Positions 38,434 through 62,401 of a DNA stretch of 64,000 bases are shown here, one piece after another. The DNA is from a virus. A program made the position numbers and the translations under genes. Position 1 is the first letter of the stretch. Every line of letters starts with the position of its first letter. Below the pieces are notes generated by a model. The model worked only from the letters and a program-made list of their open reading frames with translations, ran no database searches and was not told where the DNA came from. The stretch is taken from positions 1 through 64,000 of the IMG/VR virus record IMGVR_UViG_3300048793_000029. One strand, written 5' to 3'.

Positions 38434-39006
38434 ATGAAAAAGATAATTACTGCCATCGTGCTAGCTTGTGCTTGGCTGTTGGCGCCGCTGCCGGCTAATG
38501 CTGTCGTTGTAGTGTCATCCTGCTCATCGATAACGGCGGTGACGGGCTTCAGCGGTGACTTGTATATTGATACGTCAGGTAAGCTGTGTATCAATGCAAG
38601 TACCACTTCGTTGCCCCCCAACGCCGCCCAGGAAACCGGCGGCAATCTCGCGGCGATCTTGTCGGCTATTCAATCACCGCTTGCTGGTGTTTCCGAATCG
38701 CATAGCGCAGCGGCGGAATCATCGCGGGTTGCCAAAAACTCCGCTGGTAACGTAATCAGCATATCCGGCTCTGCCGCTGCCGGTTCCTACATCATGCTTT
38801 TCGATCTTACTGCCGCACCTAGCAATGGTGGTGTGACACCGAAGAAATGCTGGGGACCGATGGCATCGAGTGGACCGTTTTCGTTTTCATGGGGTGTCGG
38901 GCCAACCCTTACGATGGCGACCGGGATAACGGTCGTCTCTAGCTCAACCGGCTGCTTCACGCAGACATTAACCAACGCCAACTTCATCAGCGTGGAGTAT
39001 CAGTAA
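38434..39006 (+). CDS. exported fibre-like protein with signal peptide
   Basis: 190 residues from the ATG at 38434; an ATG at 38410 is the alternative. MKKIITAIVLACAWLLAPLP followed by ANA is a textbook Sec signal peptide with an AxA cleavage site. The mature part is Ser/Thr/Gly-rich and beta-rich (ISGSAAAGSYIMLFDLTAAP, then TVVSSSTGCFTQTL) with several cysteines, consistent with a periplasmic or surface protein. First of four adjacent exported proteins. Confidence 0.7.
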   Translation: MKKIITAIVLACAWLLAPLPANAVVVVSSCSSITAVTGFSGDLYIDTSGKLCINASTTSLPPNAAQETGGNLAAILSAIQSPLAGVSESHSAAAESSRVAKNSAGNVISISGSAAAGSYIMLFDLTAAPSNGGVTPKKCWGPMASSGPFSFSWGVGPTLTMATGITVVSSSTGCFTQTLTNANFISVEYQ

Positions 39007-39851
39007 TGAAAAAGATTTTAGCTCTTATCGCTGGGCTGCTGCTTGTTTCGGCTGCTTACGCGCAGAACTCATCCTCCACTCCTAAATATGCGCCGAATAG
39101 CGTTGTCTTTACTTACAACGATGGCGTTCATTGTACTAATTCTGTTTGTACCTTTCCTATTCCGGCCAACGTCAGTATTATTTATATCGATGGCGTTGGC
39201 GCTGGCGGCCCTGGCGGTGGCGGTCAGGTTACTTCCGGCGCTGGTGGAGGTGGTGGTGGCTCAGGCGAAGAGGTTACTGGACTCCCGCTGCCGGTAACTC
39301 CTGGGGCAACTCTCACTATCACCATCCCAGTAACAACGTCAGGAGGTGCTATTGCTGGTGTTGGCACAGACCCGGCTGCGCTCACCATAACTTCATCCCC
39401 AAGTCTAGCCGTTCCTTTTCCATCACTCGGTGCTGGCATCCACGGATTAGCCGGGGCTGCTACTGTTGGCGGGACTGGCGGCGCGGGCGGTGGCCCTGGC
39501 GGTGTCGCTGGCGGCGCTGCAAACGTAGCTGGTGGCAATGCATCTAATACCGGACGGTCAACTTATTACAAGACAGGAAACGGCGGCGGCGGCGGCGGCA
39601 GCACAGCATCAACTCCAGGCTTTGGCGGAACCTCTGGCGCTTACATTACACTCGGCGCTGGGGCATTAGGAAATGCTGGCGGCGGCCTAGGAGGCAATGC
39701 TCAATTTGGTCCCGGCGGCGCAGGCGGCGGCGGCACTACTCCCTCGGTAGGCTTGGCTCCCGCAAGCGGGTTCGGCGGTGGCGGTGGTGGTGGTGGCCAG
39801 AATAATGCTGGCGGGGCCGGAGGTCCGGCTTTTGTCCAGATCAGGTATTAA
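39006..39851 (+). CDS. exported glycine-rich protein
   Basis: 281 residues; start overlaps the previous stop (TAATG). KKILALIAGLLLVSAAYA is a Sec signal peptide. The mature chain is about one third glycine (GVGAGGPGGGG and GGGGGSTASTP type stretches), like the Gly-rich tips of phage fibre adhesins. Two cysteines in HCTNSVC. Probably forms polyglycine helices. Surface binding is inferred. Confidence 0.7.
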   Translation: MKKILALIAGLLLVSAAYAQNSSSTPKYAPNSVVFTYNDGVHCTNSVCTFPIPANVSIIYIDGVGAGGPGGGGQVTSGAGGGGGGSGEEVTGLPLPVTPGATLTITIPVTTSGGAIAGVGTDPAALTITSSPSLAVPFPSLGAGIHGLAGAATVGGTGGAGGGPGGVAGGAANVAGGNASNTGRSTYYKTGNGGGGGGSTASTPGFGGTSGAYITLGAGALGNAGGGLGGNAQFGPGGAGGGGTTPSVGLAPASGFGGGGGGGGQNNAGGAGGPAFVQIRY

Positions 39852-39853
39852 GC

Positions 39854-41221
39854 ATGATCTGGCGCGTTCTAATTATCTTGCTCTGTGCCGGTATTGTTTC
39901 CGGTTGGCGAGTTGGCAGCAATCTTTCCGTTGCTACGTTCTCGCCCGACGCGACTTCGTTTCTTAATCCTGAACGCGGTTGGTATGGCGACATAGGGGAC
40001 GGCAGTACGCCATGCACCGCAGCGACTAATTTTTCCAGTTATCGTGGCAACAACAAGGGAATGTCTCGCGTCTATGTTCGATTGGACGCTTATGTTTCTA
40101 GCCCGTTGCCTCAATCAATTCTGGATAACCTGACCGGCTGCTTTGCCCAAATCAGGTCAGCCGGAATTAAAGTTGAACCTAGATTTACTTATAATTTCGG
40201 CGGCGGTGCGCCGTGTACCGACGCAACGCTAACGCAGATATTGGCTCACATAGCCCAGCTCACTCCGGTGTTGCAGGCCAACATCGACGTGATTGCGTTT
40301 CTTCACGCCGGGTTCATTGGCTGTTGGGGCCAGTGGTGGGGATCAGCAAATACCCTGAATACGAACCAAAGCGCAACGCAGCAAATTCTCGCCGCCGAAT
40401 TGGCGATTGATCCTAATTTAGTGGTGATGATCCCATATCCAGACAGCGTGCGATATGCTCTCGGTGCAGCAAACATTCAAACGCGCGTCGGCATCGCTAA
40501 TGATTGTTTTCAATCAACCAACAACTCAGATGACGATGAATTTGGCAGATTGAACGGTGTTGACCAAACCGGCCAGCCTGGATATGCCGCGCAAATAACA
40601 ACTGACCGCACCTACATGCAAACGCTCGGCGGCATTACAAACGCCAACGGCGGCGAGGGTCAGCCGAGTTGCCCTTATACGGCGGTCTATAGCGATTGCG
40701 CTGCGTCCATTGCGGCAATGCAGACCTATTCAATTTCATACTTTGCTGTTTTTGCATCGTTACATCCTTCGACATGGGCGTCTGATTCTGGAAATTGTGC
40801 CGCTACGATGCAAGATTCGATGGGCTACCGCCTAGAATTGCAGCGCGTGCAATATCCAGCCAGCATAAGCAAAGGCAGCCTATTCAGTTTCAATCTTGCG
40901 CTGGTCAATCGAGGCTACGCAGGCCCGATCAATCAGCACCCGATCAATGCGGTGCTGTCGGACGGCACGCATACTTATGTGCTGTCATCGTCAATCGACT
41001 GGCGGACGTGGCGTCCTGGATCGGGAATATCCGCATGGGGCCAAGCGACGGTGCCGAGCGGTGCCGTGTCCGGCACCTACTCGCTCTATCTATGGATACC
41101 GGACAGCCACGCCAGTCTGCAAAGTAATCCACTCTATGACGTTCGCCTCGCCAACTCAGGCGTATGGGACGGAACCACCGGCTACAACAAGATTTGCGAT
41201 ACCTGCGTGACGGTGCATTGA
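39854..41221 (+). CDS. exported DUF4874/DUF4832 putative glycoside hydrolase
   Basis: 455 residues. The hydrophobic MIWRVLIILLCAGIVSG start is a signal peptide or anchor. FLNPERGWYGDIG (40-52) opens the DUF4874 domain; IDVIAFLHAGFIGCWGQWWG, the GIANDCF and NGGEGQPSCPY sections continue in a TIM-barrel-like order, and the last 130 residues form the beta-rich DUF4832 part (VNRGYAGPI, YSLYLWIPDSHASLQ). The family is annotated as putative glycosidase; acid residues in GGEG are candidates for catalysis. It could cut host surface glycan. Confidence 0.8.
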   Translation: MIWRVLIILLCAGIVSGWRVGSNLSVATFSPDATSFLNPERGWYGDIGDGSTPCTAATNFSSYRGNNKGMSRVYVRLDAYVSSPLPQSILDNLTGCFAQIRSAGIKVEPRFTYNFGGGAPCTDATLTQILAHIAQLTPVLQANIDVIAFLHAGFIGCWGQWWGSANTLNTNQSATQQILAAELAIDPNLVVMIPYPDSVRYALGAANIQTRVGIANDCFQSTNNSDDDEFGRLNGVDQTGQPGYAAQITTDRTYMQTLGGITNANGGEGQPSCPYTAVYSDCAASIAAMQTYSISYFAVFASLHPSTWASDSGNCAATMQDSMGYRLELQRVQYPASISKGSLFSFNLALVNRGYAGPINQHPINAVLSDGTHTYVLSSSIDWRTWRPGSGISAWGQATVPSGAVSGTYSLYLWIPDSHASLQSNPLYDVRLANSGVWDGTTGYNKICDTCVTVH

Positions 41222-42270
41222 TGAAAAACATCCTGCCGACATGGAAACTCTTTCTCACCGCAGGAAGCTTTCTGTTCTTCCTTGGAGCGTTTCAATCCAG
41301 CACCATCGCGTGGGTACATGGTGGCGTAAGCTACTTTTTTCCAAATGGGATCGCAGTCACACAAAATAGTTCTTCTGGTGTCAACTATGGAGCAGGTACT
41401 GAAAACGGGTCAACAAACTCATTTATTTGGTCGGCATTAAGCACCTATACGAGTGGCAGCACGCTGCAAAATCCCGCGACCGGCATATGCTCAGACGTGA
41501 CAATATGTTTTGTCGATGCCTATGCGGTAGGGCGCGATACGGTTGACGCGAGCGCGGCATCCAATGGTTTCTTCGGTCATTTCTTTTCTCTCAATTCCGG
41601 CGGTACGGGCACTAAGGGTGGCCACCACGCGGCGCTGTTTCAGTTTCAGCTTGTTGGCGCGCCGGATGATACAAACCAATTTTATTCGGCAGTAAATACA
41701 ATTTCGCAGGCTTCCGTTAGCGCAGGCGGAACGTCTGGTGCTGGCAATGGGCTTGGGCATCTTTACGGGACAAATCCTTACGCGAGGCTTACATCAGGTG
41801 CGACAAATTGGGGTCAGCTTGTCGGCACAGAAATAAATACAAGCGTTCATACTGGCGCATCGGTCGATCAGGTGATCGGCCAACAGATTGTCCAAGACAC
41901 CCTCGATGTTGTTTCTGGCAATCAGGTTGATATCGGAATTTCTCTCAACAACCAAGCGATCAAGGCTTCGGTAGCCGGTTGGGATATTCTCTTTGCTGAC
42001 GGTTCTTATCCCGGTTATTCGTCGCTGAAAACCACCGGCACTATTTTCAAATGTTATCTGCACGCCAACAGCGGTAACTGCGGAACAATCGCGAACGGTT
42101 TCGATATGACGAACTACACTTTAACCGGCGCACCAATCCTAGCTCCGCTTAAAACTCCGTCCAGTTCGTCTGATACCTGCACCCAAGGCGCGCAGGAATG
42201 GGATGCCAGTTACGTCTATATCTGCACAGCGACGAATACATGGAAGCGCGCGGCGCTGAGTACATTCTAG
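41221..42270 (+). CDS. exported fibre-like protein with C-terminal tip domain
   Basis: 349 residues; start overlaps the previous stop (TGATG). The first 35 residues (KLFLTAGSFLFFLGAFQSST) are a signal peptide or anchor. The mature part is beta-rich and uncharged. The C-terminal SDTCTQGAQEWDASYVYICT and TNTWKRAALSTF is a short tip domain I recall from many phage tail proteins. Likely a surface or receptor-binding protein. Confidence 0.7.
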   Translation: MKNILPTWKLFLTAGSFLFFLGAFQSSTIAWVHGGVSYFFPNGIAVTQNSSSGVNYGAGTENGSTNSFIWSALSTYTSGSTLQNPATGICSDVTICFVDAYAVGRDTVDASAASNGFFGHFFSLNSGGTGTKGGHHAALFQFQLVGAPDDTNQFYSAVNTISQASVSAGGTSGAGNGLGHLYGTNPYARLTSGATNWGQLVGTEINTSVHTGASVDQVIGQQIVQDTLDVVSGNQVDIGISLNNQAIKASVAGWDILFADGSYPGYSSLKTTGTIFKCYLHANSGNCGTIANGFDMTNYTLTGAPILAPLKTPSSSSDTCTQGAQEWDASYVYICTATNTWKRAALSTF

Positions 42271-42317
42271 GCATCCCGCTGATCGACCCGAACAGGAAGC
42301 CGCCGGAGATTAAGTGA
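42240..42317 (+). pseudogene. possible 3' remnant of a head gene after the fibre cassette
   Basis: A frame overlapping the end of the previous gene reads AEYILGIPLIDPNRKPPEIK and stops in a GTGA overlap with the next gene. The sequence looks like the C-terminal end of a real protein, yet the only ATG (42240) gives 25 residues. It may be the tail of a gene displaced when the fibre cassette entered, or a short leader peptide. Confidence 0.4.
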
Positions 42318-42511
42318 CCCACCTCGTTAACATGTTGATCGATCCCGGCGGCTACTTCTTGGCCGAGTCGGTCACTGTCGGTACCTCGCCTGAGGAGATC
42401 GAGGAGATCCGCCTCGGCAAGGTGGAAGAAGACCGTATGCACGTCATCAACGACAATTTGCGCTTCGCGGCCCAGTTATTATGTGCCGCCGCGCCGATGG
42501 GGAACTGCTGA
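42314..42511 (+). CDS. small head-module protein of unknown function
   Basis: 65 residues from GTG at 42314. THLVNMLIDPGGYFLAESVT, then VGTSPEEIEEIRLGKVEEDR and an alpha-helical end. Two cysteines near the C terminus. No family recognised. It resumes the high-GC head module after the fibre cassette. Confidence 0.6.
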   Translation: MTHLVNMLIDPGGYFLAESVTVGTSPEEIEEIRLGKVEEDRMHVINDNLRFAAQLLCAAAPMGNC

Positions 42512-42577
42512 TGCATGAGCTACAGCTTTCCGCTGCACCCGCGGCGCTATGACCGTGTCGGGTCGAGAGAAAAACTA

Positions 42578-43303
42578 ATGACAGTGCCTCTGATTATCAT
42601 GGTTGGCTCCGATAAGGGTGGCGTTGGCAAGACCACCGTTACCCGGTCGCTGATCGACTATCTGGCCTCGACTGGCGTTTCTGGCCGGGCGTTCGACTCG
42701 GAGAACCCGGCTGGCGGCCTGGCGCGCTTTGTGCCGTCGGCCAAGGTCGTCGATATGGCCCGCGTCGAGGATCAGATGGAGATGTTCGACGTCGCCTCCG
42801 GCGTCACCGTCATCGACGTACGGGCCGGCATGCTGTCCAAGAGCCTTGCTACGCTAGAGCAGGCCCACTTGCTCGATGACGTTCAGACCGGCGCCGTCGG
42901 TCTGGTTCTGATGCATGTGCTGGGACCAAGTGTTCAATCGCTAGGCGAGGTTTCGGCGGCTGCCGCCAGGATCGGTGGTGGCTCGCGGCATATACTAGTC
43001 AAGAACCACATCAGTGATGTCACCGGCGGTTACTTCGAATGGGACGGCGCTGACAGCAAGTTCGCCGCGGTGTTAGCCCAGATGGAGCCGCAGACCGTGG
43101 TAGTGCCGCACTTGGCCGAGCGGGCTTGTGAGACTGTTGACAAGCTCGGCGTCGGCTTTACCGACTTCTGCCGCGACGCCGGTCAGTCGCGCATGCTACG
43201 CGGCTACGTGCGGACGTGGTTGACGTCGACTTGGGCCGACTTTGATAAGGTGGGTTTGGGTGGGTTGGCGAAGAGCGCGTGCGCTCCGAAGGAGGGATCG
43301 TAA
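42578..43303 (+). CDS. ParA/MinD-like ATPase
   Basis: 241 residues from ATG at 42578 (GAGAGAAAAAC upstream); an ATG at 42515 would add 21 residues. Deviant Walker A KGGVGKTT (13-20), then FDSENPAGGLARF and VTVIDVRAGMLSK (Walker B region) identify a ParA/MipZ/MinD P-loop ATPase. These normally bind DNA or membrane to position cargo. A copy between portal-associated and protease genes is unusual; it might act in DNA partition or capsid positioning. TAATG overlap with the protease gene. Confidence 0.8.
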   Translation: MTVPLIIMVGSDKGGVGKTTVTRSLIDYLASTGVSGRAFDSENPAGGLARFVPSAKVVDMARVEDQMEMFDVASGVTVIDVRAGMLSKSLATLEQAHLLDDVQTGAVGLVLMHVLGPSVQSLGEVSAAAARIGGGSRHILVKNHISDVTGGYFEWDGADSKFAAVLAQMEPQTVVVPHLAERACETVDKLGVGFTDFCRDAGQSRMLRGYVRTWLTSTWADFDKVGLGGLAKSACAPKEGS

Positions 43304-44727
43304 TGCCACAGATAGATTCCTTCGCCTTCGACCGCGCCAGTGTGCGCCGTACCGACGACGACGGTCGGCTGCATGTTGAGATAACAAATATTTCAAAATC
43401 GAATGTGTGTCCCTATCTTGGCTCTGAAATCCCTGACTGGGAAGAGATGGGCCTCAAGCGCGACAAGGTCTATCAGCTGCTGCGCGACCCGGCTGAACTG
43501 CGCAAGGCCGCGCCTTCATTCAATAATTTACCGCTACTTAGCGAGCACGTCCCGGTCAACGCGCAAGATCACCAGCCTGATTTAGTGATCGGCTCCACCG
43601 GTACCGATGCTGAGTTTGCGGAGCCTTATCTGCGCAACAGCCTGGTGCTATGGGCGAAGGATTTCATTGACGCGGTGGAGTCCGGCACTCAGAAAGAACT
43701 TTCGTCCGCCTACCGCTACCGGGCCGATATGACGCCCGGCAACTACAACGGAGCAGAATACGACGGCGTGATGCGCGACATCATCGGCAATCACGTCGCT
43801 TTGGTAAGGGAAGGGAGAGCCGGCAGTGATGTCATTGTCGGAGATTCGGCATTACCCATAACAGAGGAGATCATCCAGATGGGTGTGAAACTGAGCCGCA
43901 AGGCTGCACTGGCCCAGGGAGCCCTGATGGTCTTCCTGAAGCCGAAGATGGCACAAGACGCCAAGATTGACCTCGCGTCAGTACTCAAGGGCGTCACGGC
44001 CAAGAACTACGTCGAGAGCAAGCCGGCAATCTTCGCCGGCATCGCCAAGCTGCTCGACGGCAAGCTGGCCAAGGACGCCAAGCTTGAGGACGTCCACGGC
44101 TTCCTCGATTCGCTTGACAGGGAAGAGCCTGCCGGCGACGAAGAGCCGGAGAAAAAGGACGAGCCGGCCAAGGACGAAGAAAAAGACGAAGTCAAGAAGC
44201 CCGCTGAGGACGAGGACGACACGGCAATGGACGCCGAGGGCGTCAAAAACTTCCTTAAGGACAAGATCTCCGAAGACGATATGAAGGCGCTCGACGCACT
44301 CATGTCCGGAGCCAAGGACGCAGACGAGCCTACTCCCGTCAAGGAGCCGGCCAAAGACGAGGAGAAGGAAGAAATGGTGCCGAAGAAGGCAATGGACGCG
44401 GCGATCAAGTCGGCGATCAAGGTCGCTGCCGATACCGCCACCAAGACCCAGAAGGACATCCGCGAGGCCGAGAACTTCGTGCGGCCGTGGGTGGGCAATA
44501 TCGCCATGGCGCACGACAGCGCCGAAGGCGTCTACCGCACTGCGCTTGGTGCGCTCGGCAAGAAGGATGTCGATCAGATCCATCCTGCCGCGCTCAAGCA
44601 CGTCCTTGAAGCTCAACCCAAGCCCAACGAGAAGAAGCCGGCGGCTGAGCACCTCGCGATGGATGCGGCCTCCGTCGACAGCTTCAACAAGCGTTTCCCC
44701 GGTGCCGCTCGCATCGGACAGGCATAA
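43303..44727 (+). CDS. DUF2213 prohead protease/scaffold
   Basis: 474 residues; ATG at 43303 has AAGGAGGGATCGTA upstream. Residues 1-190 match DUF2213 (TNISKSNVCPYLGSEIPDWE, LLSEHVPVNAQDHQPD, YRADMTPGNYNGAEYDGVM, IIGNHVALVREGRAG), a predicted capsid protease with a His and Ser core. The region after 230 is Lys/Glu/Asp-rich and helical (DEEPEKKDEPAKDEEKDE), typical of scaffold. A fused protease-scaffold that shapes the prohead and is then cut away. Confidence 0.88.
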   Translation: MPQIDSFAFDRASVRRTDDDGRLHVEITNISKSNVCPYLGSEIPDWEEMGLKRDKVYQLLRDPAELRKAAPSFNNLPLLSEHVPVNAQDHQPDLVIGSTGTDAEFAEPYLRNSLVLWAKDFIDAVESGTQKELSSAYRYRADMTPGNYNGAEYDGVMRDIIGNHVALVREGRAGSDVIVGDSALPITEEIIQMGVKLSRKAALAQGALMVFLKPKMAQDAKIDLASVLKGVTAKNYVESKPAIFAGIAKLLDGKLAKDAKLEDVHGFLDSLDREEPAGDEEPEKKDEPAKDEEKDEVKKPAEDEDDTAMDAEGVKNFLKDKISEDDMKALDALMSGAKDADEPTPVKEPAKDEEKEEMVPKKAMDAAIKSAIKVAADTATKTQKDIREAENFVRPWVGNIAMAHDSAEGVYRTALGALGKKDVDQIHPAALKHVLEAQPKPNEKKPAAEHLAMDAASVDSFNKRFPGAARIGQA

Positions 44728-44739
44728 GGAGATATCAAC

Positions 44740-45729: not shown

Positions 45730-45741
45730 GGAGAAACACAA

Positions 45742-47815: not shown

Positions 47816-48268
47816 GTGGCCGATATCTTCACCACTAAGTTCAGTGGTGGCGCTAAGCTGGCGGCCGCGCTCAAGGCGATGGCCGAAAAGGTTCGCAGCC
47901 CAGGGACGCTGAGCGTTGGGTTTCAGGACGGGTCTACTGACGAGAGCGGAACGCTCAATGCGATGAAGGCTGCTTTGAACGAGTACGGCACCAAAAACAT
48001 CCCACCGCGGCCGTTCTTTCGTACCATGGTTGCCAACAAAAGCGGCGGCTGGGCCGGCGACATCGAGAAGCTGCTAAAGGCCAACGACTACGATGCTACG
48101 GTAACGCTCGATTACATGGGCGATAAGATCAAGGGCCAGCTCGTGGATTCTATTTTTAACGGCGGTTGGCTACCGAATAAGCCATCTACTCTCGCCAGGA
48201 AGTCGGGGACGCAACCATTGGTTGACACTGGCGCAATGTCTAATTCTATAACGTGGGTGGTTAAATGA
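47816..48268 (+). CDS. neck/tail-completion protein (HK97 gp10-like)
   Basis: 150 residues from a GTG directly after the previous stop. GGAKLAAALKAMAEKVRSPG, then SVGFQDGSTDESG, NIPPRPFFRTMVANKSGGW and the end QPLVDTGAMSNSITWVV fit tail-completion proteins of the gp10/Mu gpG-like type. ATGA overlap with the glycosyltransferase-like gene. Confidence 0.75.
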   Translation: MADIFTTKFSGGAKLAAALKAMAEKVRSPGTLSVGFQDGSTDESGTLNAMKAALNEYGTKNIPPRPFFRTMVANKSGGWAGDIEKLLKANDYDATVTLDYMGDKIKGQLVDSIFNGGWLPNKPSTLARKSGTQPLVDTGAMSNSITWVVK

Positions 48269-49191
48269 TCTTTCTCGTAAATCTCATGAACCACAATGAA
48301 GTTGGACAACGCAGTCTTGAAGATGTTGTGGGAATTTTTGGTCATCAGCTTCGTTCGTTCGGTCACCAGATCGTGTGGGAGACCAGTAACACGCGCTTCC
48401 TCGGCCCTGGTCAAGGCATAAATATCATCGTCGAGGGCTTCTTCCCCTATCACGTTCCAATTATCGCCGAGGCCCACAGCAAGGGCGCCCGCTTTCTGAT
48501 GTTGGCGACCGAGGAGCCAACCGATAAAGGCTTCAACCACGGTACCCAGGAAGAGATGGTTGTGCGCCAACGGGTGTTCCCCGAAGTGGCCAAATACTTT
48601 GACGGCATCCTCCACTTGGTGCCTGGCGAGAACATCACGCGCTGGTACGGCCAATTCGCGCCGACCGCGCAGATCGAGTTGGGCTACGCGCCGACTTTGG
48701 TACGCAACCACGGCATTGTACCGGACTATGACTTCGGTTTCTACGGCTCGCTGACGCCGCGCCGGCTCAAGTTGCTCAAGCGGCTGGCGAACAAAATCAA
48801 TTCGCCCAAGGCGGTTAAGATCGTGAGCGACTTCAAGACCCAGACCGAGCGCGACCAATTGATGTCGCGCGCCAAGGTGATCGTGCAGATAAGGAAGTTC
48901 GAGGAGATGGGCCTGGTGTCGAGTTCACGCTGCAACACAGCGTTGCATATCGGTCGCCCGGTGGTGGCCGAGCCACACCTACTGTCGAAGCCGTGGGACG
49001 AGGTGGTCGATTTCGCCGCCTCGATCGACGACTTCTTCTCCAAGGCTATTATGGCCAAGGCCATGTGGAAGGGGTTGCATGGTAGCCAAATGGAAAAGTT
49101 CAAGAAGAAGCTTTCGCCGGAGTTCTGCGTCGGCCACGCCTTGGCGGCGATCGGCATGACAGACGATTCGGCGCAGCGGAAGGTTGCCTAA
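48265..49191 (+). CDS. glycosyltransferase-like protein (GT-B, CgeB-like)
   Basis: 308 residues. DYDFGFYGSLTPRRLKLLKR (153-172), then TQTERDQLMSRAKVIVQIRK and SSSRCNTALHIGRPVVAEPH, form the C-terminal nucleotide-sugar domain of CgeB-like GT-B transferases; the N-terminal half carries NIIVEGFFPYHVPIIAEAHS. It would transfer a sugar from a nucleotide sugar in the cytoplasm. It sits among connector genes, coupled by ATGA, so a virion protein is a likely acceptor, and the sugar cassette at 1-7 kb a possible donor source. Confidence 0.75.
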   Translation: MIFLVNLMNHNEVGQRSLEDVVGIFGHQLRSFGHQIVWETSNTRFLGPGQGINIIVEGFFPYHVPIIAEAHSKGARFLMLATEEPTDKGFNHGTQEEMVVRQRVFPEVAKYFDGILHLVPGENITRWYGQFAPTAQIELGYAPTLVRNHGIVPDYDFGFYGSLTPRRLKLLKRLANKINSPKAVKIVSDFKTQTERDQLMSRAKVIVQIRKFEEMGLVSSSRCNTALHIGRPVVAEPHLLSKPWDEVVDFAASIDDFFSKAIMAKAMWKGLHGSQMEKFKKKLSPEFCVGHALAAIGMTDDSAQRKVA

Positions 49192-52921: not shown

Positions 52922-54780
52922 TGGCAACTATCATCGACGAATTGGTAGTGCAACTTGGCCTCGACCCTACGAAGTTTGTCGAGGGCGGCCACGTCACGGT
53001 TGCTGAGTATAAGAAGCTTGTCGAGGGCATTGATAAGCACAGTAAAGATGCGGTCAAGTCAGTCAAGACCGTAGAGGACGGCTTCACCAAGGTCACCAGA
53101 GCCATCGGTGAGATGACTGCCGGCTACTTGACTGTTACCGGCATCAGTAGCTTCATCCAGCAAACTAACGCCACCAATGTTGCGGTCGGCCAGTTGGCGA
53201 CGACGCTCGGCCTGATGCCGGATAAGATCGCTCAATATACGGAGGCCGCGCGGCGGGCTAATATCAATCCGCAGTCGATGACGTCAGCCCTCAACACGCT
53301 GAACATGCGGGCGGGCGCTGCCAAGCAGGGGCAGGACTCTGCACTCTTCGACCCGTTGGCAAGGCTCGGTGTTAACCCGAATGTGGTGTGGTCAAACGAC
53401 CCCACTACTATGTTGCGTGGTATCGCGTCAGCGGCGCAGAAACAGATTGCCGGTGGCCGGCCGCTCGATGAGGTTAACGCCAACCTGGCCGCTATTGGAT
53501 TGAACGGCGACCTGATCTATATGATCGATCGGTCGGACAAGAAGCTCAAGGAATTCTTTGAGGACGCCGAGAAGCTCCATGCAACAACGAACGCCCAGAT
53601 CGAATCTTCCACGAGGCTGCTGAGTGCCTGGAACGAGTTCGTCCCGATCCTCACTAAGCTCGGTAACTCTATCGCTAAGGACCTCGACGGGCCGCTGGGT
53701 TGGCTCGTGAAAACCATGGGCGGCGTTAACGACCACATGGAGGCGTTCAAACACCTTCTCGAAGAGATCGGCGGCCTGCTGATCGGGACGTCTTTAGGCG
53801 CGGCCATCGGCGGTATCATTGGATTCTTCAGCCCCGTCCCAGGCGGCATGGCCATAGGTGCCGGCATCGGTGCGCGTATCGGCGCGGGCGTCGGATTATT
53901 GGGTGGCGCGGGCCTTGCGGCTAGCAGTCCTCCAGACCCGAACCTTGCCGCGGCGCCAAAAGGCGGCAGCAACGCGGTAGCTCCGGCTGGAGGCACAGCT
54001 CCTGCTCCGGGAGCTGGAGGTACTGGCTTAACTACCTTGCAAGCGGATCGTGCGAGATTTGCAGAGGAATTGAGGCTCAATCCTGGTTTGAAGGACGAAC
54101 TCTTTAAGCATGCTACTGGCGAAAACAATGACCCGCTTGCAAATAAGATTATCATGGAAACGGCAATGAACCGCGCTTCGCAGCGGCACACTTCGTTAGC
54201 TGCACAGCTTGGCTATTTTCAGGGTTATCGAGGCTATGATTCTAAGCATGCAGCAATGATGGAACAAAACCTCAAAAGTGTGCTTAGCGGCTCAAACGAG
54301 GGCCTTGGTGCAACAGATAACTCATCCGGTGGATTGGCCGAGCGCGAGAAAGCAAGCGGCAAATTTATACATCGACGCACGGTTAACGGTGAGTCTTTCT
54401 TCATTCCTGGCTCGGCTGAAAAAGGATTACAAAGAAGTTACGGCCCATGGGCAGCGCAGCGTGGTCTAGATCCTACCACTGGATTAGCGTTACCCAGCGC
54501 TGCTGCTCCCGTTCCTGCTCAGGCTGCTCCAGCCAGCGGCAGCAACGCCGTCGTTCCTGCTGTCCCCGCTGAGGAGGGCTGGGGCCATTGGCTAGGCCGG
54601 CACATGCCAAGTTTCTTGTCGCCGTCATCGTCGTCCACCACCAACAACAAGCAATCGTCGTTGAGCATCGGCAACATGAACTTCCACGGCGTGCGTGATA
54701 TGAAAGACGTGGCGGACAACATTCAGCCGTTCATCGCAAACCGCTTCTCGGCCGTCGCGGCGGATACCGGCTATGGTTGA
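52921..54780 (+). CDS. tape measure protein with possible lytic domain
   Basis: 619 residues, short for a long-tailed myovirus. N-terminal IIDELVVQLGLDPTKFVEGG and helical region, a Gly-zipper hydrophobic segment (near 283-335, GGIIGFFSPVPGGMAIGAGI), a Pro/Ala linker, then a globular section at about 370-520 (LKDELFKHATGENND, LANKIIMETAMNRASQR, YFQGYRGYDSKHAAMM) that looks like a cell-wall hydrolase domain, and a C-terminal part. It sets tail length and may help DNA pass the envelope. Confidence 0.82.
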   Translation: MATIIDELVVQLGLDPTKFVEGGHVTVAEYKKLVEGIDKHSKDAVKSVKTVEDGFTKVTRAIGEMTAGYLTVTGISSFIQQTNATNVAVGQLATTLGLMPDKIAQYTEAARRANINPQSMTSALNTLNMRAGAAKQGQDSALFDPLARLGVNPNVVWSNDPTTMLRGIASAAQKQIAGGRPLDEVNANLAAIGLNGDLIYMIDRSDKKLKEFFEDAEKLHATTNAQIESSTRLLSAWNEFVPILTKLGNSIAKDLDGPLGWLVKTMGGVNDHMEAFKHLLEEIGGLLIGTSLGAAIGGIIGFFSPVPGGMAIGAGIGARIGAGVGLLGGAGLAASSPPDPNLAAAPKGGSNAVAPAGGTAPAPGAGGTGLTTLQADRARFAEELRLNPGLKDELFKHATGENNDPLANKIIMETAMNRASQRHTSLAAQLGYFQGYRGYDSKHAAMMEQNLKSVLSGSNEGLGATDNSSGGLAEREKASGKFIHRRTVNGESFFIPGSAEKGLQRSYGPWAAQRGLDPTTGLALPSAAAPVPAQAAPASGSNAVVPAVPAEEGWGHWLGRHMPSFLSPSSSSTTNNKQSSLSIGNMNFHGVRDMKDVADNIQPFIANRFSAVAADTGYG

Positions 54781-55534: not shown

Positions 55535-55978
55535 ATGTTGACTATTCCCATCACGGCAAACTACGCACAGACCTTGACGACGGTTTTGAACCAGCAGACC
55601 TGTCATATCAACATCTATCAGAAGTTCTATGGCGTGTTCGTAGACCTGTACGTCGACACCGGTCTCATCATCGGTGGCGTGCTTGCTGAAGACCGCAATT
55701 TCATCGTCAGGGACACTTACCTTGGGTTCTTGGGCGACATTGGCTTCATCGACACTCAGGGTAATGACGATCCAAATTACGTCGGCCTCGGCTCTCGCTT
55801 TGTGCTGGTCTATCTTACCCCGGCAGAGGTCGCCATTGCGCAGAAGGCCTACGTGGCCAGCGCATCAGCTCTTCCGCCATTTATTCCTTCCTCTATCGTG
55901 CCTGTTCCCCCAATCGCCACCCCATCGTTAGACTTCTCTGATCCGGCAAACAGCCAATATATTGGGATGTTCCCATGA
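55535..55978 (+). CDS. baseplate plug protein (DUF6983-like)
   Basis: 147 residues; start right after the previous stop. TIPITANYAQTLTTVLNQQT, then INIYQKFYGVFVDLYVDTGL, GGVLAEDRNFIVRDTYLGFL and YVGLGSRFVLVYLT match DUF6983 plug proteins. The C-terminal 35 residues are Pro-rich. It closes the tail tube in the baseplate. ATGA overlap with the next gene. Confidence 0.85.
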   Translation: MLTIPITANYAQTLTTVLNQQTCHINIYQKFYGVFVDLYVDTGLIIGGVLAEDRNFIVRDTYLGFLGDIGFIDTQGNDDPNYVGLGSRFVLVYLTPAEVAIAQKAYVASASALPPFIPSSIVPVPPIATPSLDFSDPANSQYIGMFP

Positions 55979-56592
55979 CACGTAGAGGATTTGACTTCAT
56001 GATTAGGTACTGGAAAGGCACTATAGCCATATTGTTAACATTGGCGGCTGTCAGTGCTGCCATTGCCGCGAGCGGCACCATCACGGTCAAGGACGGGAAC
56101 GGTGTAGCGCGCACGTATGCCGTAGTGACGGACGGGTCTGGAAACTACGTCGCTATGAACGTGATATGCGACTATTCGTCGGCAGCGAATTGCGCGACGG
56201 TTAATAGCTCGCACCAACTCAGTGTCGTTGCTTCATCTGACCCCTGCATGTCAGCGGCCAAGACAAACCTATCTATCGATAGCAACACAACGGCCCTCAC
56301 GCAACTTATCGCCGCATCTGGTTCTACTCAAATTTATATCTGTTCGGTTTTGATTGTATCTAATGGAACAACTATCACTTTCAACACTGGTACTGGCACC
56401 AATTGCGGCACCGGCACTGCTGGACTAATTGGCGGAACGACAGTTGGCCACTCGATGACTCTTGCAAATAGCAATTTGACCTACGGCAACGGGTTGGGAA
56501 CCGTAGCTGTCACTGGCGTCGGAGGCGAAGTCTGTATGGCGCTCGGTTCGTCCGTCTATGTTGCCGGTAATATGACCTACGTGCAGCAGTAG
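55975..56592 (+). CDS. exported beta-rich protein with signal peptide
   Basis: 205 residues from the ATGA overlap, or 197 from the ATG at 55999. RYWKGTIAILLTLAAVSAAI with AxA sites is a Sec signal peptide. The mature part is beta-rich with paired cysteines (VICDYSSAANCATV, IYICSVLIVSNGTT). It resembles the other exported fibre-like proteins here, and sits between baseplate genes, which do not usually carry signal peptides. Confidence 0.68.
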   Translation: MTRRGFDFMIRYWKGTIAILLTLAAVSAAIAASGTITVKDGNGVARTYAVVTDGSGNYVAMNVICDYSSAANCATVNSSHQLSVVASSDPCMSAAKTNLSIDSNTTALTQLIAASGSTQIYICSVLIVSNGTTITFNTGTGTNCGTGTAGLIGGTTVGHSMTLANSNLTYGNGLGTVAVTGVGGEVCMALGSSVYVAGNMTYVQQ

Positions 56593-56601
56593 CTATCAAG
56601 C

Positions 56602-57447: not shown

Positions 57448-57448
57448 C

Positions 57449-58156
57449 ATGGCCGACGAACATCCCAGTACCGAGTTCATGGAGTCGCCGGCTGCCGACT
57501 TCAATACGCATCAGTTTCTGCAAGACCGCGGGCTGAATCGCACGGCAAAGGCAACGCTCGTTCAAGTGACCAAGGTGTCGACGACCGGACAGGTTGCCCC
57601 GGTCGGCACCGTTAGCGTCTCGCCACTGGTGAAGATGCAGGACGCGCTAGGCAACGTGCATCCGCACAGTGAGATGCACAACCTGCCATACTTCCGTATG
57701 CAGGGCGGTGCTGACAAGGCGGTTATCCTTGATCCGAAGGTCGGCGATATCGGTGTGGCCGTGTTTGCGGACAGGGATATAAGTACTGCCGTCAAGAACA
57801 ACTCTGGATGGGACGGCACGAAGAAAGTAAGCGACGCCCAGGCCCCGCCGGGATCGTTTCGACAGCACGACATGGCTGACGGTATGTTCTTCGGCTGCTT
57901 CCTCGGCGGTAAGCCGAAGAGTTATATTCAATTTAAGGATGACGGCAGCATAAACATGAGTCCAGACGAGGGCACCACTTCGTTTCTTCTCGAAAAGAAT
58001 AAAGCGACGCTCACGGCCACTCAGTTTATTGTCAACGGGACTTCTTACCTCGGCGGTCCGGATGCGAGCCTGAAAGCTGGTATGGTTGGTACCGTTGATA
58101 CTGATGGCGATGCGCTAACGCAGGAAGCGGCGGCAACAAAAGTGTTTATGAAGTAA
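57449..58156 (+). CDS. baseplate spike (gp138/gpV-like)
   Basis: 235 residues. An N-terminal OB-like domain (ATLVQVTKVSTTGQVAPVGT, VSVSPLVKMQDALGNVHPHS, PKVGDIGVAVFADRDIS) followed by a beta section (SYIQFKDDGSINMSPDEG) and a short spike tip match gp138-type spikes that pierce the outer membrane. No metal-binding HxH tip is clear. Overlaps the wedge gene by one base. Confidence 0.85.
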   Translation: MADEHPSTEFMESPAADFNTHQFLQDRGLNRTAKATLVQVTKVSTTGQVAPVGTVSVSPLVKMQDALGNVHPHSEMHNLPYFRMQGGADKAVILDPKVGDIGVAVFADRDISTAVKNNSGWDGTKKVSDAQAPPGSFRQHDMADGMFFGCFLGGKPKSYIQFKDDGSINMSPDEGTTSFLLEKNKATLTATQFIVNGTSYLGGPDASLKAGMVGTVDTDGDALTQEAAATKVFMK

Positions 58157-58506
58157 TGCAAACCTTTCTCCTCGATACCGCCGGTTGGGATCTGACGATA
58201 GATTCCGACAGGAACATCGCCATGGCCAGCGAACCGTACTCGCAGGCGCAGGACGCGGCCAGCGCCATCAAGACCTTCCAGGGCGAGTGCTACTACAACA
58301 TCAATCTTGGCATCCCATACTGGAGTAGCGTACTGGGATTCACGCCGTCGCTGGCGCTGATGAAGTCCTACTTCATGACAATGGCGCTCCTTGTTCCAGG
58401 CACTACCACGGCGGTCTGCTATATAAATTCGTTCGTTAATCGAAAGGTCACAGGTCAGGTGCAAATAACAAACTCGGCTGGCCAAATCTCAGCGGCAGGC
58501 TTCTAG
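58156..58506 (+). CDS. baseplate wedge protein (gp25/W-like)
   Basis: 116 residues. MQTFLLDTAGWDLTIDSDRN, then AQDAASAIKTFQGECYYNIN and LGIPYWSSVLGFTPSLALM, match the gp25/DUF2634-like wedge. It nucleates sheath assembly at the baseplate. Confidence 0.88.
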   Translation: MQTFLLDTAGWDLTIDSDRNIAMASEPYSQAQDAASAIKTFQGECYYNINLGIPYWSSVLGFTPSLALMKSYFMTMALLVPGTTTAVCYINSFVNRKVTGQVQITNSAGQISAAGF

Positions 58507-58507
58507 C

Positions 58508-59944
58508 ATGACGAACGTGCCGCCACCGACCTTCGGCCCACGAGGGTTCATTGCCCCTCTAGAGTCGCAGATACTCGCCGGCTTTCAGGCCGACATCAAC
58601 GCTGCTTTCGGTGGCAATCTGAATACAGCACTCAATACGCCGCAGGGTCAGTTGGCCTCGTCGATGGCTGCCGTTACTGGCAACGCTATGGACACTTTCG
58701 CGCTAATGGCCAACTCTGTTGATCCGGCCTACGCCACCGGCCGCTACCAGGACGGCATCGCTCGCATCTACTTCATTGAGCGAATACCTTCGTCGTCCAC
58801 TGTGGTGCTGGCAACTTGCTCAGGGTTGACGGGAACGCTGATCCCAGTAGGTTCGCTGGCGCAAGCCGCTGACGGCAATACCTACACTAGTACCGCCGAC
58901 GGCATTATTGGCGTCAATGGTACGGTCGATATATCGTTTGCCTGCAACGTGCAGGGCAGTATCTCTTGTCCCGCAAACAGTCTGACGACCATCTACCAAA
59001 CCGTGCTGGGTTGGGATTCCATCACCAACGCCTCGGATGGCGTCATCGGCAACGACGTGGAGAACCGCGCCGACTTCGAGAACCGCCGCTTCCAGTCGGT
59101 GGCGCACAACTCACTAGGTTTCCTGCCGTCGGTGTTGGGTGCGGTACTGTCGGTGCCAAACGTAGTTGACGCCTACGTGACGGAGAACGCCACAGGCTCC
59201 CCTATCATCGTTACCGGCGTCACCATCGCAGCTCGTTCGATCTACGTGTCGGCGGCCGGTGGGTTGGCGGCCGATATAGCGCAGGCGCTGTGGCAGAAGA
59301 AGGCCCCCGGCTGTGGTTACAACGGCAACACCACGGTCACGGTATACGACAACCAATCCGGCTACGACCCACCATACCCAGCCTACCCAGTATCGTTTGA
59401 GACGCCAGACCCGCTCGACGTCTTATTCTCTGTAAACATCGTCAACGGCGTGCTGGTGCCGTCAAATGCGGCGACTCAAATACAAAGTGCCATCATCGCA
59501 GCCTTCGCTGGCGAGGACGGCGGCCAGCGCGCTCGCATCGGTTCGATCATCTACGCCTCCAGGTTCTACGCTTCGGTGGCGGCATTAGGCCCGTGGGCGC
59601 AGATCGTTGCCATTGACATCGGTTCAGCCAACACGCCGGCTGCTTCCATCGTCGGCAGCATTAGCGGTCTTACGCTGACGGTGACCAGTTGCACCGCAGC
59701 GACCATCGCCAATAATCAATTCTTATCCGGCAGCGCTGGCGGCAGCAGCGTGGCTATCGGTACCCAGATTGTCGGGCAGGTATCCGGGTCGACCGGCGGC
59801 ACCGGCACCTATACGGTGAGCATTACGCAAATCGTGCCGTCGATGGCGATGGCTACAGCGACCGCCAACCAGAACTCGGTTGCGGTACAGATCAATCAGG
59901 TACCGACAGTGTCGGCTCTCGATATCGTGGTTAACACGTCCTAG
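58508..59944 (+). CDS. baseplate J-like protein with inserted GTYTVS domain
   Basis: 478 residues. GNLNTALNTPQGQLASSMAA, then DGIARIYFIERIPSSSTVVL, VENRADFENRRFQSVAHNSL and a DPLDVLFSVNIVNG section match J-like wedges. Near 395-455 an insert (VGSISGLTLTVTSC, GTQIVGQVSGSTGG, GTYTVSITQ) repeats the domain of the cement and terminator proteins. C-terminal NQVPTVSALDIVVNTS is the usual J end. Confidence 0.88.
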   Translation: MTNVPPPTFGPRGFIAPLESQILAGFQADINAAFGGNLNTALNTPQGQLASSMAAVTGNAMDTFALMANSVDPAYATGRYQDGIARIYFIERIPSSSTVVLATCSGLTGTLIPVGSLAQAADGNTYTSTADGIIGVNGTVDISFACNVQGSISCPANSLTTIYQTVLGWDSITNASDGVIGNDVENRADFENRRFQSVAHNSLGFLPSVLGAVLSVPNVVDAYVTENATGSPIIVTGVTIAARSIYVSAAGGLAADIAQALWQKKAPGCGYNGNTTVTVYDNQSGYDPPYPAYPVSFETPDPLDVLFSVNIVNGVLVPSNAATQIQSAIIAAFAGEDGGQRARIGSIIYASRFYASVAALGPWAQIVAIDIGSANTPAASIVGSISGLTLTVTSCTAATIANNQFLSGSAGGSSVAIGTQIVGQVSGSTGGTGTYTVSITQIVPSMAMATATANQNSVAVQINQVPTVSALDIVVNTS

Positions 59945-59946
59945 CC

Positions 59947-60657
59947 ATGTACGCCCTCTTATCTCAATTAGCGCAAATGACGGTAGCTTCGGCCCCCGGC
60001 ACTGGACCTGTGACGGTCGGCGTTGCCATTCCACCGTTTCCAACACTGGAGAGTGCTGGCGTCGTCGATGGACAGATTATCCGATATTTCTTGGCCGATG
60101 GCGCGGCGTGGGAACGAGGCATCGGCGTCTACACAGTCGCGACTAAGACTTTCACGCGGACGGTGCAGCGTTCCAGCTTCGGGTCTTTGCCAATCAACGC
60201 TTCGATAAACACCACAGTCAATTGCAGCAGCGCGCAGTTTTCCGGAGGCGGTGGCGGAGGTAGCGGAATTGCTTACGCTCAAGACTTTGTCTCCCCAGGT
60301 GATTTCACACCCGGCACTACTACTAGCCTCACACTTTCAACGACCCCAGATTCAGCAGCGTCCCTTCTCATAGCGTTCGATGGCATAGTTCAGTCGCACG
60401 ATACCTGGTCACTTGCGGGGGCGGTGATTACGTTTTCCTCGGCTATCCCATGGAATGTTCAGGTCGTAGAAGCGCAATGCGGGCTTGTTGGCAACAACGT
60501 CTTTACTGTTGCCACGTTGCCCGCGGCTTCGGGTCTGGCGGGGGTGCGGGCGTTTGTCACGGATGCGAACTCAACCACCTTTTTGGCAACCGCAGTTGGC
60601 GGCGGCGTGAACGCCGTACCTGTGGTTTGTGACGGCACCTATTGGAAGATTGGGTAG
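59947..60657 (+). CDS. tail-fibre-type protein
   Basis: 236 residues. N-terminal DGQIIRYFLADGAAWERGIG, then VYTVATKTFTRTVQRSSFG, is a fold seen in phage proteins after J. A Gly-rich hinge is followed by a beta-domain and an end FTVATLPAASGLAGVRAFVT, with VVCDGTYWKIG, common in fibre tips. Probably binds the baseplate by its N terminus. Confidence 0.72.
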   Translation: MYALLSQLAQMTVASAPGTGPVTVGVAIPPFPTLESAGVVDGQIIRYFLADGAAWERGIGVYTVATKTFTRTVQRSSFGSLPINASINTTVNCSSAQFSGGGGGGSGIAYAQDFVSPGDFTPGTTTSLTLSTTPDSAASLLIAFDGIVQSHDTWSLAGAVITFSSAIPWNVQVVEAQCGLVGNNVFTVATLPAASGLAGVRAFVTDANSTTFLATAVGGGVNAVPVVCDGTYWKIG

Positions 60658-60663
60658 AGGAAG

Positions 60664-61791
60664 ATGAAGAAAATTATTGCAGCCCTAATAGTAATCATCA
60701 CTTTTTCTTTTGCGACTACGCTCACTATTGCGCAACCGGTAACGACAAACCCTAATTTAAGCAATTTGACTGGCGTCGATCTTCGGCAGTTTGCGACGCT
60801 TTCCTGCAATCCGGCATCACCATCCTCAACAAATGTTGCCGCTGCGGTTTACAAGGCTAATCAAGCTGGCTTTACTCATTTTTTCATGCCAGCCGGGTGT
60901 TTTCTTTATCTCGGTGATGCGGCGTGGACCGCACACTTTACAGTCAATGTTATTCCTACCGGCTTTTATTTTCAGGGTGAGAACTGGGCAACGTCGGGCA
61001 TTAGTGTTTGCTCGACCTATACTGGCTGCACACCAGGTAGCGGCACGCTTATCACAGGAATAGGACCTATCGAAATTAAGAACATGTTCACGATGGACGG
61101 CGCCTGTTACAACGTCGACAGCGGTGCTTTTGGTAATCCCGTTTATTGCCCAATCAGCGAATTATTTACCAACGCCGGTTCCTTTGATCAGGACGTCACC
61201 TATCCTGGCCAGGCCATTCAACTTAACATTGGCGCTTATACTAATGGAACGTGGAACGGCACTGACCAGCCGGGTTTAGCTATCAATCAAGAAACGCAAG
61301 GGGATGTTTTCTTTATAAACGACGTTTCCACGAACACGTCGGCGCATCTGCTAAATTTCTTCAATCGGTACGGCACTGTGGCGACGCTTAATGTTGATGG
61401 TAAATTCTCCATCGGAACTTCGTCAACAGTACATTCCGGGAATGGAATGATCCAAATCGCGGATGCTTATGGGACTTGTAACATTTACGCAAACACAAGT
61501 GGAGCCCCAGGCTTTGCCTGTTCATCGGATGAAAGATTGAAAAAGGACATTCACAAAGCCAAAAGTGAATTGCCGTATCTGATGAGTTTTCCAATTCGGG
61601 ATTATGTCTGGAAGAAAAACGGTATAGCGGGAACTAGCACGATTGCGCAACAGATGCTCAAAGTTCATCCTGAAATGGTGCGAAAGGATGACAGCGGCTA
61701 TTACGAGGTTGCTGTACCGGAAATCTGGAAGCTCACTAAGGCCATGCAGGAAATGCAAACAGAAATTGTCGAACTAAAACAGAGGAAGTAA
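60664..61791 (+). CDS. exported fibre/spike with C-terminal S74 autochaperone
   Basis: 375 residues. MKKIIAALIVIITFSFATTL is a Sec signal peptide. The middle is beta-rich with many cysteines (LSCNPASP, VCSTYTGCTPG, GACYNVDSG). The end from residue 287 (SSDERLKKDIHKAKSELPYL, GTSTIAQQMLKVHPEMV, IWKLTKAMQEMQTEIVEL) is a peptidase S74 intramolecular chaperone that trimerises fibres and cuts itself off at a Ser. A signal peptide on such a protein is unusual. Strong ribosome site (AGAGGAAG). Confidence 0.82.
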   Translation: MKKIIAALIVIITFSFATTLTIAQPVTTNPNLSNLTGVDLRQFATLSCNPASPSSTNVAAAVYKANQAGFTHFFMPAGCFLYLGDAAWTAHFTVNVIPTGFYFQGENWATSGISVCSTYTGCTPGSGTLITGIGPIEIKNMFTMDGACYNVDSGAFGNPVYCPISELFTNAGSFDQDVTYPGQAIQLNIGAYTNGTWNGTDQPGLAINQETQGDVFFINDVSTNTSAHLLNFFNRYGTVATLNVDGKFSIGTSSTVHSGNGMIQIADAYGTCNIYANTSGAPGFACSSDERLKKDIHKAKSELPYLMSFPIRDYVWKKNGIAGTSTIAQQMLKVHPEMVRKDDSGYYEVAVPEIWKLTKAMQEMQTEIVELKQRK

Positions 61792-61796
61792 ATACG

Positions 61797-62150
61797 ATGA
61801 AACGTATTGTTGTCGGCCTCCTCATTGCCGTGTTGCCATTCGCTGCGGTGGCGCAGCAGGTGTGGATCGCAAGTGAGAGCGAGACCTACGATCAAAACAC
61901 CGACATCGGCAAAGCGATGCAGATTTGCCACCAGTATCTTCATACTGTAATTGGGATACAACCGAAGAATGGCTGGCGCGCACAATATGATACGGCGCCG
62001 GATTCTAATGGCGTGCCGCGTTGGCAAACTTGTGACGCGGTGCGAACGCAATGGCAGGCAAGTGGCGTGGCCGCAGCAGCCAAGCAGAAGACAGAAGATG
62101 ATTTTATCTCTGGTTTTGTGGTGAAGCTCCAGCAGCCGCTTCCGAAGTAA
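61797..62150 (+). CDS. small exported protein with signal peptide
   Basis: 117 residues. MKRIVVGLLIAVLPFAAVAQ is a Sec signal peptide with AVA-Q cleavage. The mature part has a pair of cysteines (QICHQYLHTVI and WQTCDAVRT) and a helical end. No family recognised. It follows the S74 gene closely. Confidence 0.68.
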   Translation: MKRIVVGLLIAVLPFAAVAQQVWIASESETYDQNTDIGKAMQICHQYLHTVIGIQPKNGWRAQYDTAPDSNGVPRWQTCDAVRTQWQASGVAAAAKQKTEDDFISGFVVKLQQPLPK

Positions 62151-62173
62151 GCAGCGAACGCAGGAAAACCAAA

Positions 62174-62401
62174 ATGATCCGAGCATTTACTATCGCACTC
62201 GGCCTCGCAGTGGCTACAGCAGCAAATGCCCAACAGCTAGCGCCGCAGACAATGGTTCGGCAACTCATAGCGAATGATGCCAATATCAAAGCTGCGCTGG
62301 CTATCGAACTCGACAAGGCCAACGCGCGGATCGCGGCACTTATAGCCGAGAACGAGGCGTTGAAGAAGGCGCAGGGCAAGACAGAAGCGAAGAAGCCTTA
62401 A
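62174..62401 (+). CDS. small exported coiled-coil protein
   Basis: 75 residues. RAFTIALGLAVATAANA-Q is a Sec signal peptide. The mature 55 residues form a coiled coil (AALAIELDKANARIAALIAE, NEALKKAQ). The plan is like small periplasmic Lpp-type or spanin-like proteins, though no lipobox Cys is present. TAATG overlap with the next gene. Confidence 0.68.
   Translation: MIRAFTIALGLAVATAANAQQLAPQTMVRQLIANDANIKAALAIELDKANARIAALIAENEALKKAQGKTEAKKP

What the first reader, a model, noticed from the sequence alone, without database searches (positions are those of the whole stretch)
38434..62401. Eight fibre-region proteins carry Sec-type signal peptides
Genes at 38434, 39006, 39854, 41221, 55975, 60664, 61797 and 62174 begin with a basic residue, a hydrophobic core and in most cases an AxA site (39854 and 41221 are weaker, anchor-like). 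They lie among tail-fibre and baseplate genes, not in a lysis cassette. Virion proteins normally assemble in the cytoplasm, so exported fibre-like proteins (including an S74 autochaperone and a Gly-rich adhesin) are unexpected. They might coat the infected cell, block superinfection, modify surface glycan before release, or join virions outside the cytoplasm.
Basis: partly seen in the sequence, partly recalled or inferred. Interest (0 to 1): 0.75.

Follow-up and report, generated by a model that had tools for sequence, protein, structure and literature searches.

The report
Phage tail fibres carrying export signals
This virus and dozens of its relatives put a bacterial export tag on tail-fibre-type proteins, which phages normally build inside the host cell, and the tag has been kept while the fibres behind it were swapped, so these phages probably mature some fibres outside the cytoplasm.

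Summary
All eight N-termini look like Sec signal peptides; two (39854, 41221) are weak, and the start given as 55975 is more likely 55999. A ninth fibre-like example lies just outside the window (genome 64518). Their mature parts carry even cysteine numbers (9 of 9) at 2.7 times the density of the other late genes.

It is not a peculiarity of this genome. A 97%-identical sibling has swapped most of the 38.4-42.3 kb cassette, yet every replacement gene again starts with a signal peptide. Fibres sharing the N-terminal motif of 64518 were found in 50 viral loci: 42 have a clear signal peptide, in most ending right at the motif. Complete mature parts have even cysteine counts in 32 of 34, against about half for neighbouring tail genes. 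Five loci without the tag start at the motif and almost lack cysteine. Only 1 of 72 unselected fibres with another common motif has a signal peptide. Cultured phages share the trait (Bcep781 group, BgManors32, phiAO1, phiAX1).

Best reading: fibres exported by Sec, oxidised in the periplasm, and joined to virions at or after lysis. Export is well supported; virion attachment is inferred and untested.

The parts
38434..39006 (+). Exported protein, 190 aa; MKKIITAIVLACAWLLAPLPANA|VVVVSSC; mature Cys 4
   Evidence: the sibling L009 keeps the signal peptide and the first ~55 aa at 96% and changes the rest
39006..39851 (+). Exported Gly-rich adhesin-like protein, 281 aa; MKKILALIAGLLLVSAAYA|QNSSS; mature Cys 2
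   Evidence: (Gly_rich_2, below cut-off)
39854..41221 (+). DUF4874 + DUF4832 protein, 455 aa, weak signal peptide or anchor MIWRVLIILLCAGIVSG; mature Cys 10
41221..42270 (+). Fibre-like protein with phage-tail C-terminal domain, 349 aa, weak signal peptide; mature Cys 6
   Evidence: (phrog_17312); sibling homologue is 605 aa with clean SP and an S74 domain
55999..56592 (+). Exported protein, 197 aa (start revised from 55975); MIRYWKGTIAILLTLAAVSAAIAA|SGT; mature Cys 6
   Evidence: lies after 55535, in the slot that Bcep781 gp49 occupies after gp50 (slot equivalence judged by eye)
60664..61791 (+). Exported tail-fibre-like protein with C-terminal S74 chaperone (SDERLK matches SDxxxK); MKKIIAALIVIITFSFATTLTIA|QPV; mature Cys 8
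   Evidence: 84% identical in the sibling while flanking genes are 97-100%
61797..62150 (+). Small exported protein, 117 aa; MKRIVVGLLIAVLPFAAVA|QQV; mature Cys 2
62174..62401 (+). Small exported, probably coiled-coil protein, 75 aa; MIRAFTIALGLAVATAANA|QQL; Cys 0
36526..38220 (+). Two tail-fibre-type genes without signal peptide (36526-37761, 37774-38220) just upstream of the exported cassette
58508..59944 (+). Baseplate J-like protein; marker used to find relatives
62401..64000 (+). Tail protein phrog_587 (62401-63066) and collar-domain tail fibre without SP (63080-, runs past the window end); in the genome followed by the exported fibre 64518-64877 and endolysin 64862

Best explanation
These genes encode Sec-exported proteins, several of them of tail-fibre type. 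The signal peptide takes them to the host periplasm, signal peptidase I cuts (in most fibres before a conserved N-terminal adaptor motif that starts with Gln), and the mature fibre forms disulphides and trimerises there, S74 domains acting as chaperones in some. At or after lysis the mature fibres meet particles assembled in the cytoplasm and dock through the adaptor. SHOWN by sequence: signal-peptide-like N-termini, conservation of the signal while the body is swapped, cleavage site next to the adaptor, SP-less homologues starting at the adaptor, paired cysteines, tail-fibre gene position. INFERRED: actual export, cleavage, disulphides, trimerisation and docking on the virion.
For: Signal peptides in all eight plus a ninth. 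Sibling: cassette replaced, SPs kept. Of 50 viral loci with the adaptor motif, 42 have a clear SP, with gp25/J/I/collar homologues beside nearly all. SP-less homologues begin at the adaptor: Rhizobium rhizogenes MGSSPNLSYGQVPTAGEWNGYF against R. freirei ...TIAFA|QSSPNLSYGQVPTAGQWNGYF. Mature Cys even in 32/34 against 13/28, 26/43 and 23/43 for J, I and collar genes. Cys density 1.06 per 100 aa with SP, 0.13 without. Tree of J proteins: one clade of mostly alphaproteobacterial phages (97/95) is SP+ in 49 of 57 rows as labelled (two of those labels doubtful, see full report), with SP-less homologues nested inside. Base rate 1/72. Cultured phages with the trait.
Against: No experiment or virion proteomics. 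Tails assemble in the cytoplasm, so an exported fibre needs an unproven late-docking step. These genomes also encode SP-less collar and fibre genes, so a virion could be complete without the exported ones. Some SP-less spikes have many Cys (L025, 18), and three exported ones have odd counts (L067 9, L080 3, BgManors32 gp48 7). Some of the eight are not fibre-like.
Confidence: 0.5

Rival explanations
1. The proteins are exported and stay with the infected cell or diffuse away. They occupy or trim surface receptors, so that new virions are not lost on debris or siblings and superinfection is blocked. They are free receptor-binding proteins, not virion parts.
For: Signal peptides and S74/adhesin/pectate-lyase-like domains. 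Separate SP-less collar and fibre genes could serve the virion. Swapping between siblings would suit receptor matching too.
Against: A secreted binder needs no tail-adaptor motif, yet the motif is conserved and also starts SP-less homologues at the same locus. No lipobox or other surface anchor in most.
Confidence: 0.27
2. The N-termini are uncleaved signal anchors that hold the fibres in the inner membrane during morphogenesis, freed at lysis as with SAR endolysins.
For: 39854, 41221 and L098 look anchor-like; SAR release is an established phage strategy (PMC6116005).
Against: Most have canonical AxA|Q sites directly before the adaptor.
Confidence: 0.08
3. Cargo genes: host-derived secreted proteins picked up next to tail genes and acting on host envelope or exopolysaccharide, unrelated to the virion.
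For: 39854 (DUF4874/DUF4832), 61797 and 55999 have no fibre domain; the phage also carries sugar-pathway genes.
Against: The trait recurs at the tail-fibre locus in dozens of phages, with fibre motifs, chaperone and tail C-terminal domains.
Confidence: 0.1
4. Artefact: real starts lie downstream and the leaders are not translated, or hydrophobic N-termini are common in fibres.
For: SignalP was not available; the score is home-made; some starts lack a clear Shine-Dalgarno.
Against: Mature parts mostly start with Gln and have no start codon at the cleavage site; RBS-like sequence before most starts; base rate 1/72; leaders kept while bodies change.
Confidence: 0.03

Closest known systems
Bcep781 gp49, Bcep43 gp48, Bcep1 gp51, BcepNY3 gp50 (cultured Burkholderia phages); BgManors32 gp48
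   Same: Signal peptide then Gln and a related adaptor (QFAPGQVLTAAQLNSQF; QFVPGQVLTAQQLNSAL); annotated tail fibre or tail protein; Bcep781 and Bcep1 entries note 'possible signal peptide domain'; mature Cys 14 (Bcep781) and 4 (Bcep1, BcepNY3)
   Different: One such gene found per phage in the stretches read, against nine here; BgManors32 gp48 has an odd mature Cys count (7); function not known to be tested
Bdellovibrio MAT fibres (PMC10769870)
   Same: Signal peptide followed by a conserved domain, phage-like trimeric fibre, S74 subset, displayed outside the cell
   Different: Encoded by the bacterium and used for predation; the ~130-aa beta-rich domain after their SP was not compared here
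Conventional tail fibres and spikes
   Same: S74, Collar neighbour, pectate-lyase-like and fibre repeat motifs, fibre locus
   Different: Conventional fibres are made in the cytoplasm without export signals; a phage DGR survey took absence of SPs as support for phage origin (PMC6199706)
Signal-peptide and SAR endolysins (PMC6116005)
   Same: Phage proteins exported by Sec before lysis
   Different: Lytic enzymes, not fibres; no lytic domain here
Disulphide-rich virions of Milano and 7-7-1 (PMC10811340, PMC12796354)
   Same: Phages of Alphaproteobacteria with stabilising disulphides
   Different: There the bonds are in sheath, baseplate and capsid; no SP-bearing fibre was mentioned in the passages read

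Membership tests
Sec / signal peptidase I substrate | Basic n-region, hydrophobic core, small residues at -3 and -1 | tested here: met
   39854 and 41221 borderline. No SignalP, no experiment.
Sec / signal peptidase I substrate | Exported and cleaved in vivo | not testable with these tools
   Needs PhoA fusions or N-terminomics
Tail fibre / receptor-binding protein | Sequence homology to phage fibres | tested here: met
   41221 (phrog_17312), 60664 (S74 and 13 tail families), 64518 (adaptor motif); not met for 39854, 55999, 61797, 62174
Tail fibre / receptor-binding protein | Located in the tail-fibre gene block | tested here: met
   gp25-J-I-collar-fibre order in most relatives
Tail fibre / receptor-binding protein | Present in the virion | not testable with these tools
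   No proteomics found; text of the phiAO1/phiAP1 paper has no SDS-PAGE or mass spectrometry
Bdellovibrio MAT fibres | S74 subset with SDxxxK motif | tested here: met
   60664 SDERLK; Pfam S74; sibling 605-aa protein has S74 without SD
Bdellovibrio MAT fibres | ~130-aa beta-rich domain directly after SP | not tested
   No structural comparison made
Superinfection-exclusion lipoprotein | Lipobox (LxxC) at the cleavage site | tested here: not met
   None of the eight by inspection of the N-termini; 68032 is a lipoprotein but lies elsewhere
Secreted / SAR endolysin | Peptidoglycan hydrolase domain | tested here: not met
   the endolysin (GH108, 64862) has no SP

The most novel reading that the evidence does not exclude
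A large lineage of tailed phages makes distal tail fibres by a two-compartment route: head, tail and collar assemble in the cytoplasm while receptor-binding fibres are exported by Sec, oxidised and trimerised in the periplasm, and clip onto virions at lysis through a conserved adaptor. Loss of export in some members goes with loss of cysteines.
Probability: 0.45. Interest if true: 0.92.

Novelty: new variant of a known kind. Interest (0 to 1): 0.82.

Why it matters
Tail fibres decide host range and are taken to be built in the cytoplasm; absence of signal peptides has been used as support that a hypervariable fibre is a phage's rather than a bacterium's (PMC6199706). A conserved family of exported fibres would mean a second assembly site for virion parts, or a widespread class of secreted phage receptor-binders. 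Either is directly testable in cultured phages, and either affects how fibres are annotated, expressed for study and found in metagenomes.

Tried and rejected
Megablast of the region against cultured phages gave only one 110-base, 80% match. Homologue scans with 60664 and 39854 found only the sibling or nothing. Class- and family-wide genome searches with the adaptor found few prophages (5 of 398 genomes of the family of Rhizobium freirei), so host range stays open. First idea that SPs are common in fibres generally: rejected, 1/72. Idea that the trait follows all relatives of the J module: rejected, gamma- and betaproteobacterial relatives lack it at the genes read, the Bcep781 group and BgManors32 excepted. 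Literature searches for exported tail fibres found no description. The 2006 Bcep781 paper is not held. 39854 has no significant match to a solved structure. No structure predictions were run: fibre monomers fold poorly alone.

Full report
What the window is. It is 64,000 of 72,249 bases of a virus record, a contractile-tailed phage: sheath, tape measure, baseplate hub, J, collar and major head protein by PHROG/Pfam. The closest J proteins in bacterial genomes are in Rhizobium and Mesorhizobium prophages (58-60%), then other Rhizobiales and Acetobacter; the host is unknown but an alphaproteobacterium is likely (inference).

Observation. ORFs at the stated places exist. I scored N-termini with a simple rule set checked on known E. 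coli signal peptides and applied it to 91 curated genes of the genome. The eight genes score 4.87-6.94; the first clearly cytoplasmic gene scores 4.09. The gene given as 55975 more likely starts at 55999. A ninth fibre-like gene lies at genome 64518-64877. The predicted mature parts have Cys counts 4, 2, 10, 6, 6, 8, 2, 0 and 2, all even, at 2.04 per 100 aa against 0.75 in the other late genes (Fisher p 1.7e-6).

Sibling virus. IMG/VR contig 3300050011_000061 is about 97% identical over most of the compared parts. Between window 38.6 and 42.3 kb the DNA alignment breaks. The sibling carries there a 38434-like gene with the same leader and a different C-terminus, a 605-aa protein with leader MKKILALIFGLLFATSLHA, a 41221-like middle and an S74 end, and a third gene with leader MKYLIIALSLLCSPAYA. 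All three have leaders and even mature Cys counts (4, 8, 2). Elsewhere SP gene 60664 is 84% identical while its neighbours are 97-100%; 55999, 61797, 62174 and 64518 are 96-100%. So divergence is confined to the cassette and 60664, not to all SP genes.

Relatives at the fibre locus. Downstream of J and collar, L005 has an SP fibre with the classic NKAGDTM motif. Acetobacter prophages and the induced phage phiAO1 have a spike of about 760-860 aa with a leader such as MSPLFKTRFLLSLCSGVVMLAGAEAKA; in phiAP1 the corresponding leader appears split by a frameshift at a G5T5 run. Rhizobium freirei (L022) and a Rhizobiales MAG (L026) have SP fibres of 729 and 713 aa, while R. rhizogenes (L021), Mesorhizobium (L023, L024) and L027 have homologues without SP that begin at the same motif. 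phiAO1 was predicted to be an incomplete prophage by its authors, though particles were seen (PMC8566455).

Adaptor family. An alignment of the motif (A4) found 52 viral loci. Two (L099, L100) match only a repeat. Of the other 50 (one of them the sibling, one the R. freirei prophage again), 42 have a clear SP, 5 have none (L062, L071-L074) and 3 are ambiguous (L088 no standard start, L089, L098 anchor-like). L062 was first flagged SP+ through a spurious GTG and is corrected here. Near-duplicates exist (L059/L060/L082, L069/L070, L052/L053, L090/L092). Most loci also hold gp25, J, I and collar homologues. Mature Cys is even in 32 of 34 complete SP+ proteins (nominal p 3.5e-8; rows are related, so read it as strong but not literal), against 13/28, 26/43 and 23/43 in J, I and collar genes of the same loci. 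For two rows the cut chosen by the script was misplaced (L091, L095), which does not bring Cys in or out. Cys density is 1.06 per 100 aa with SP and 0.13 in five distinct SP-less homologues (p 4e-9, same caveat).

Tree. A J-protein tree of 71 rows groups the J proteins of this phage clade (97/95); inside, 49 of 57 rows are labelled SP+ and the SP-less homologues sit nested among them, consistent with export being old in this clade and lost about three times. In that run L062 was labelled SP+; with the correction the Mesorhizobium group plus L062 is one loss, and L098 is doubtful. The Acetobacter spikes share the locus but not the adaptor motif, so a single origin of the SP fibres is not shown.

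Other phages. Bcep781/Bcep43 and Bcep1/BcepNY3 carry SP + QFAPGQVLTAAQLNSQF or QFAPGQILTAAQLNAAF with different bodies; BgManors32 gp48 is similar but has 7 mature Cys. phiAX1 26418 has MKRLAILAGLCVPALAFA|QSIPT and 4 mature Cys. Podophage-like contigs L013-L017 have one to five SP proteins near head and tail genes, with even mature Cys in the sense-strand genes listed. Gammaproteobacterial relatives (Pantoea PA-1, Klebsiella ST15-VIM1phi2.1, Pseudomonas Amjad_SA, Edwardsiella Edno5, Aeromonas 56) show none in the fibre genes read.

Base rate. 80 viral loci with the DNA for NKAGDTMTG gave 72 fibre ORFs with a readable N-terminus; one (L125) has an SP.

Mechanism. Export is the economical reading of leaders, cleavage sites and paired cysteines. 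Docking on virions is inferred from the shared adaptor: SP-less homologues, which cannot leave the cytoplasm by Sec, have the same N-terminus that cleavage would give the exported ones. The main rival is a free receptor-binding protein. I put export itself at about 0.9 and virion docking at about 0.5.

Prior knowledge. The library searched holds open-licence papers only; absence of a description there is weak evidence of novelty. The GenBank notes on Bcep781 gp49 and Bcep1 gp51 show that individual cases were seen by annotators.

Noticed in passing
window 1065-7007 (-): Sugar-pathway block: GHMP kinase, NAD epimerase, DegT aminotransferase, TPP enzyme; with a glycosyltransferase 2 at genome 68391 it suggests that the phage alters a glycan.
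   Followed up: no
window 48265-49191 (+): 308-aa protein inside the head-tail block, glycosyltransferase-like by eye but without a Pfam or PHROG hit; L005 has a partial homologue at its contig edge.
   Followed up: partly
L020:36304-36530 (phiAP1): Leader of the phiAP1 spike is split by an apparent frameshift at GGGGGTTTTT: sequencing error, decay or phase-variable export.
   Followed up: partly
window 8517-10046 (-): B12-binding radical SAM protein.
   Followed up: no
L002:5033-5344 and L002:8380-8871: Probable lipoprotein (LVGGC) and a further exported Cys-rich protein outside the fibre block.
   Followed up: no
L016:4385-8627 and L017:4076-8621: Podophage-like contigs with four or five SP proteins between head and tail genes; the closest parallel to the cassette in this window.
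   Followed up: partly
window 53990-54510: Tape measure protein is only 76% identical to the sibling, with a stretch that does not align, amid 97% identity.
   Followed up: no
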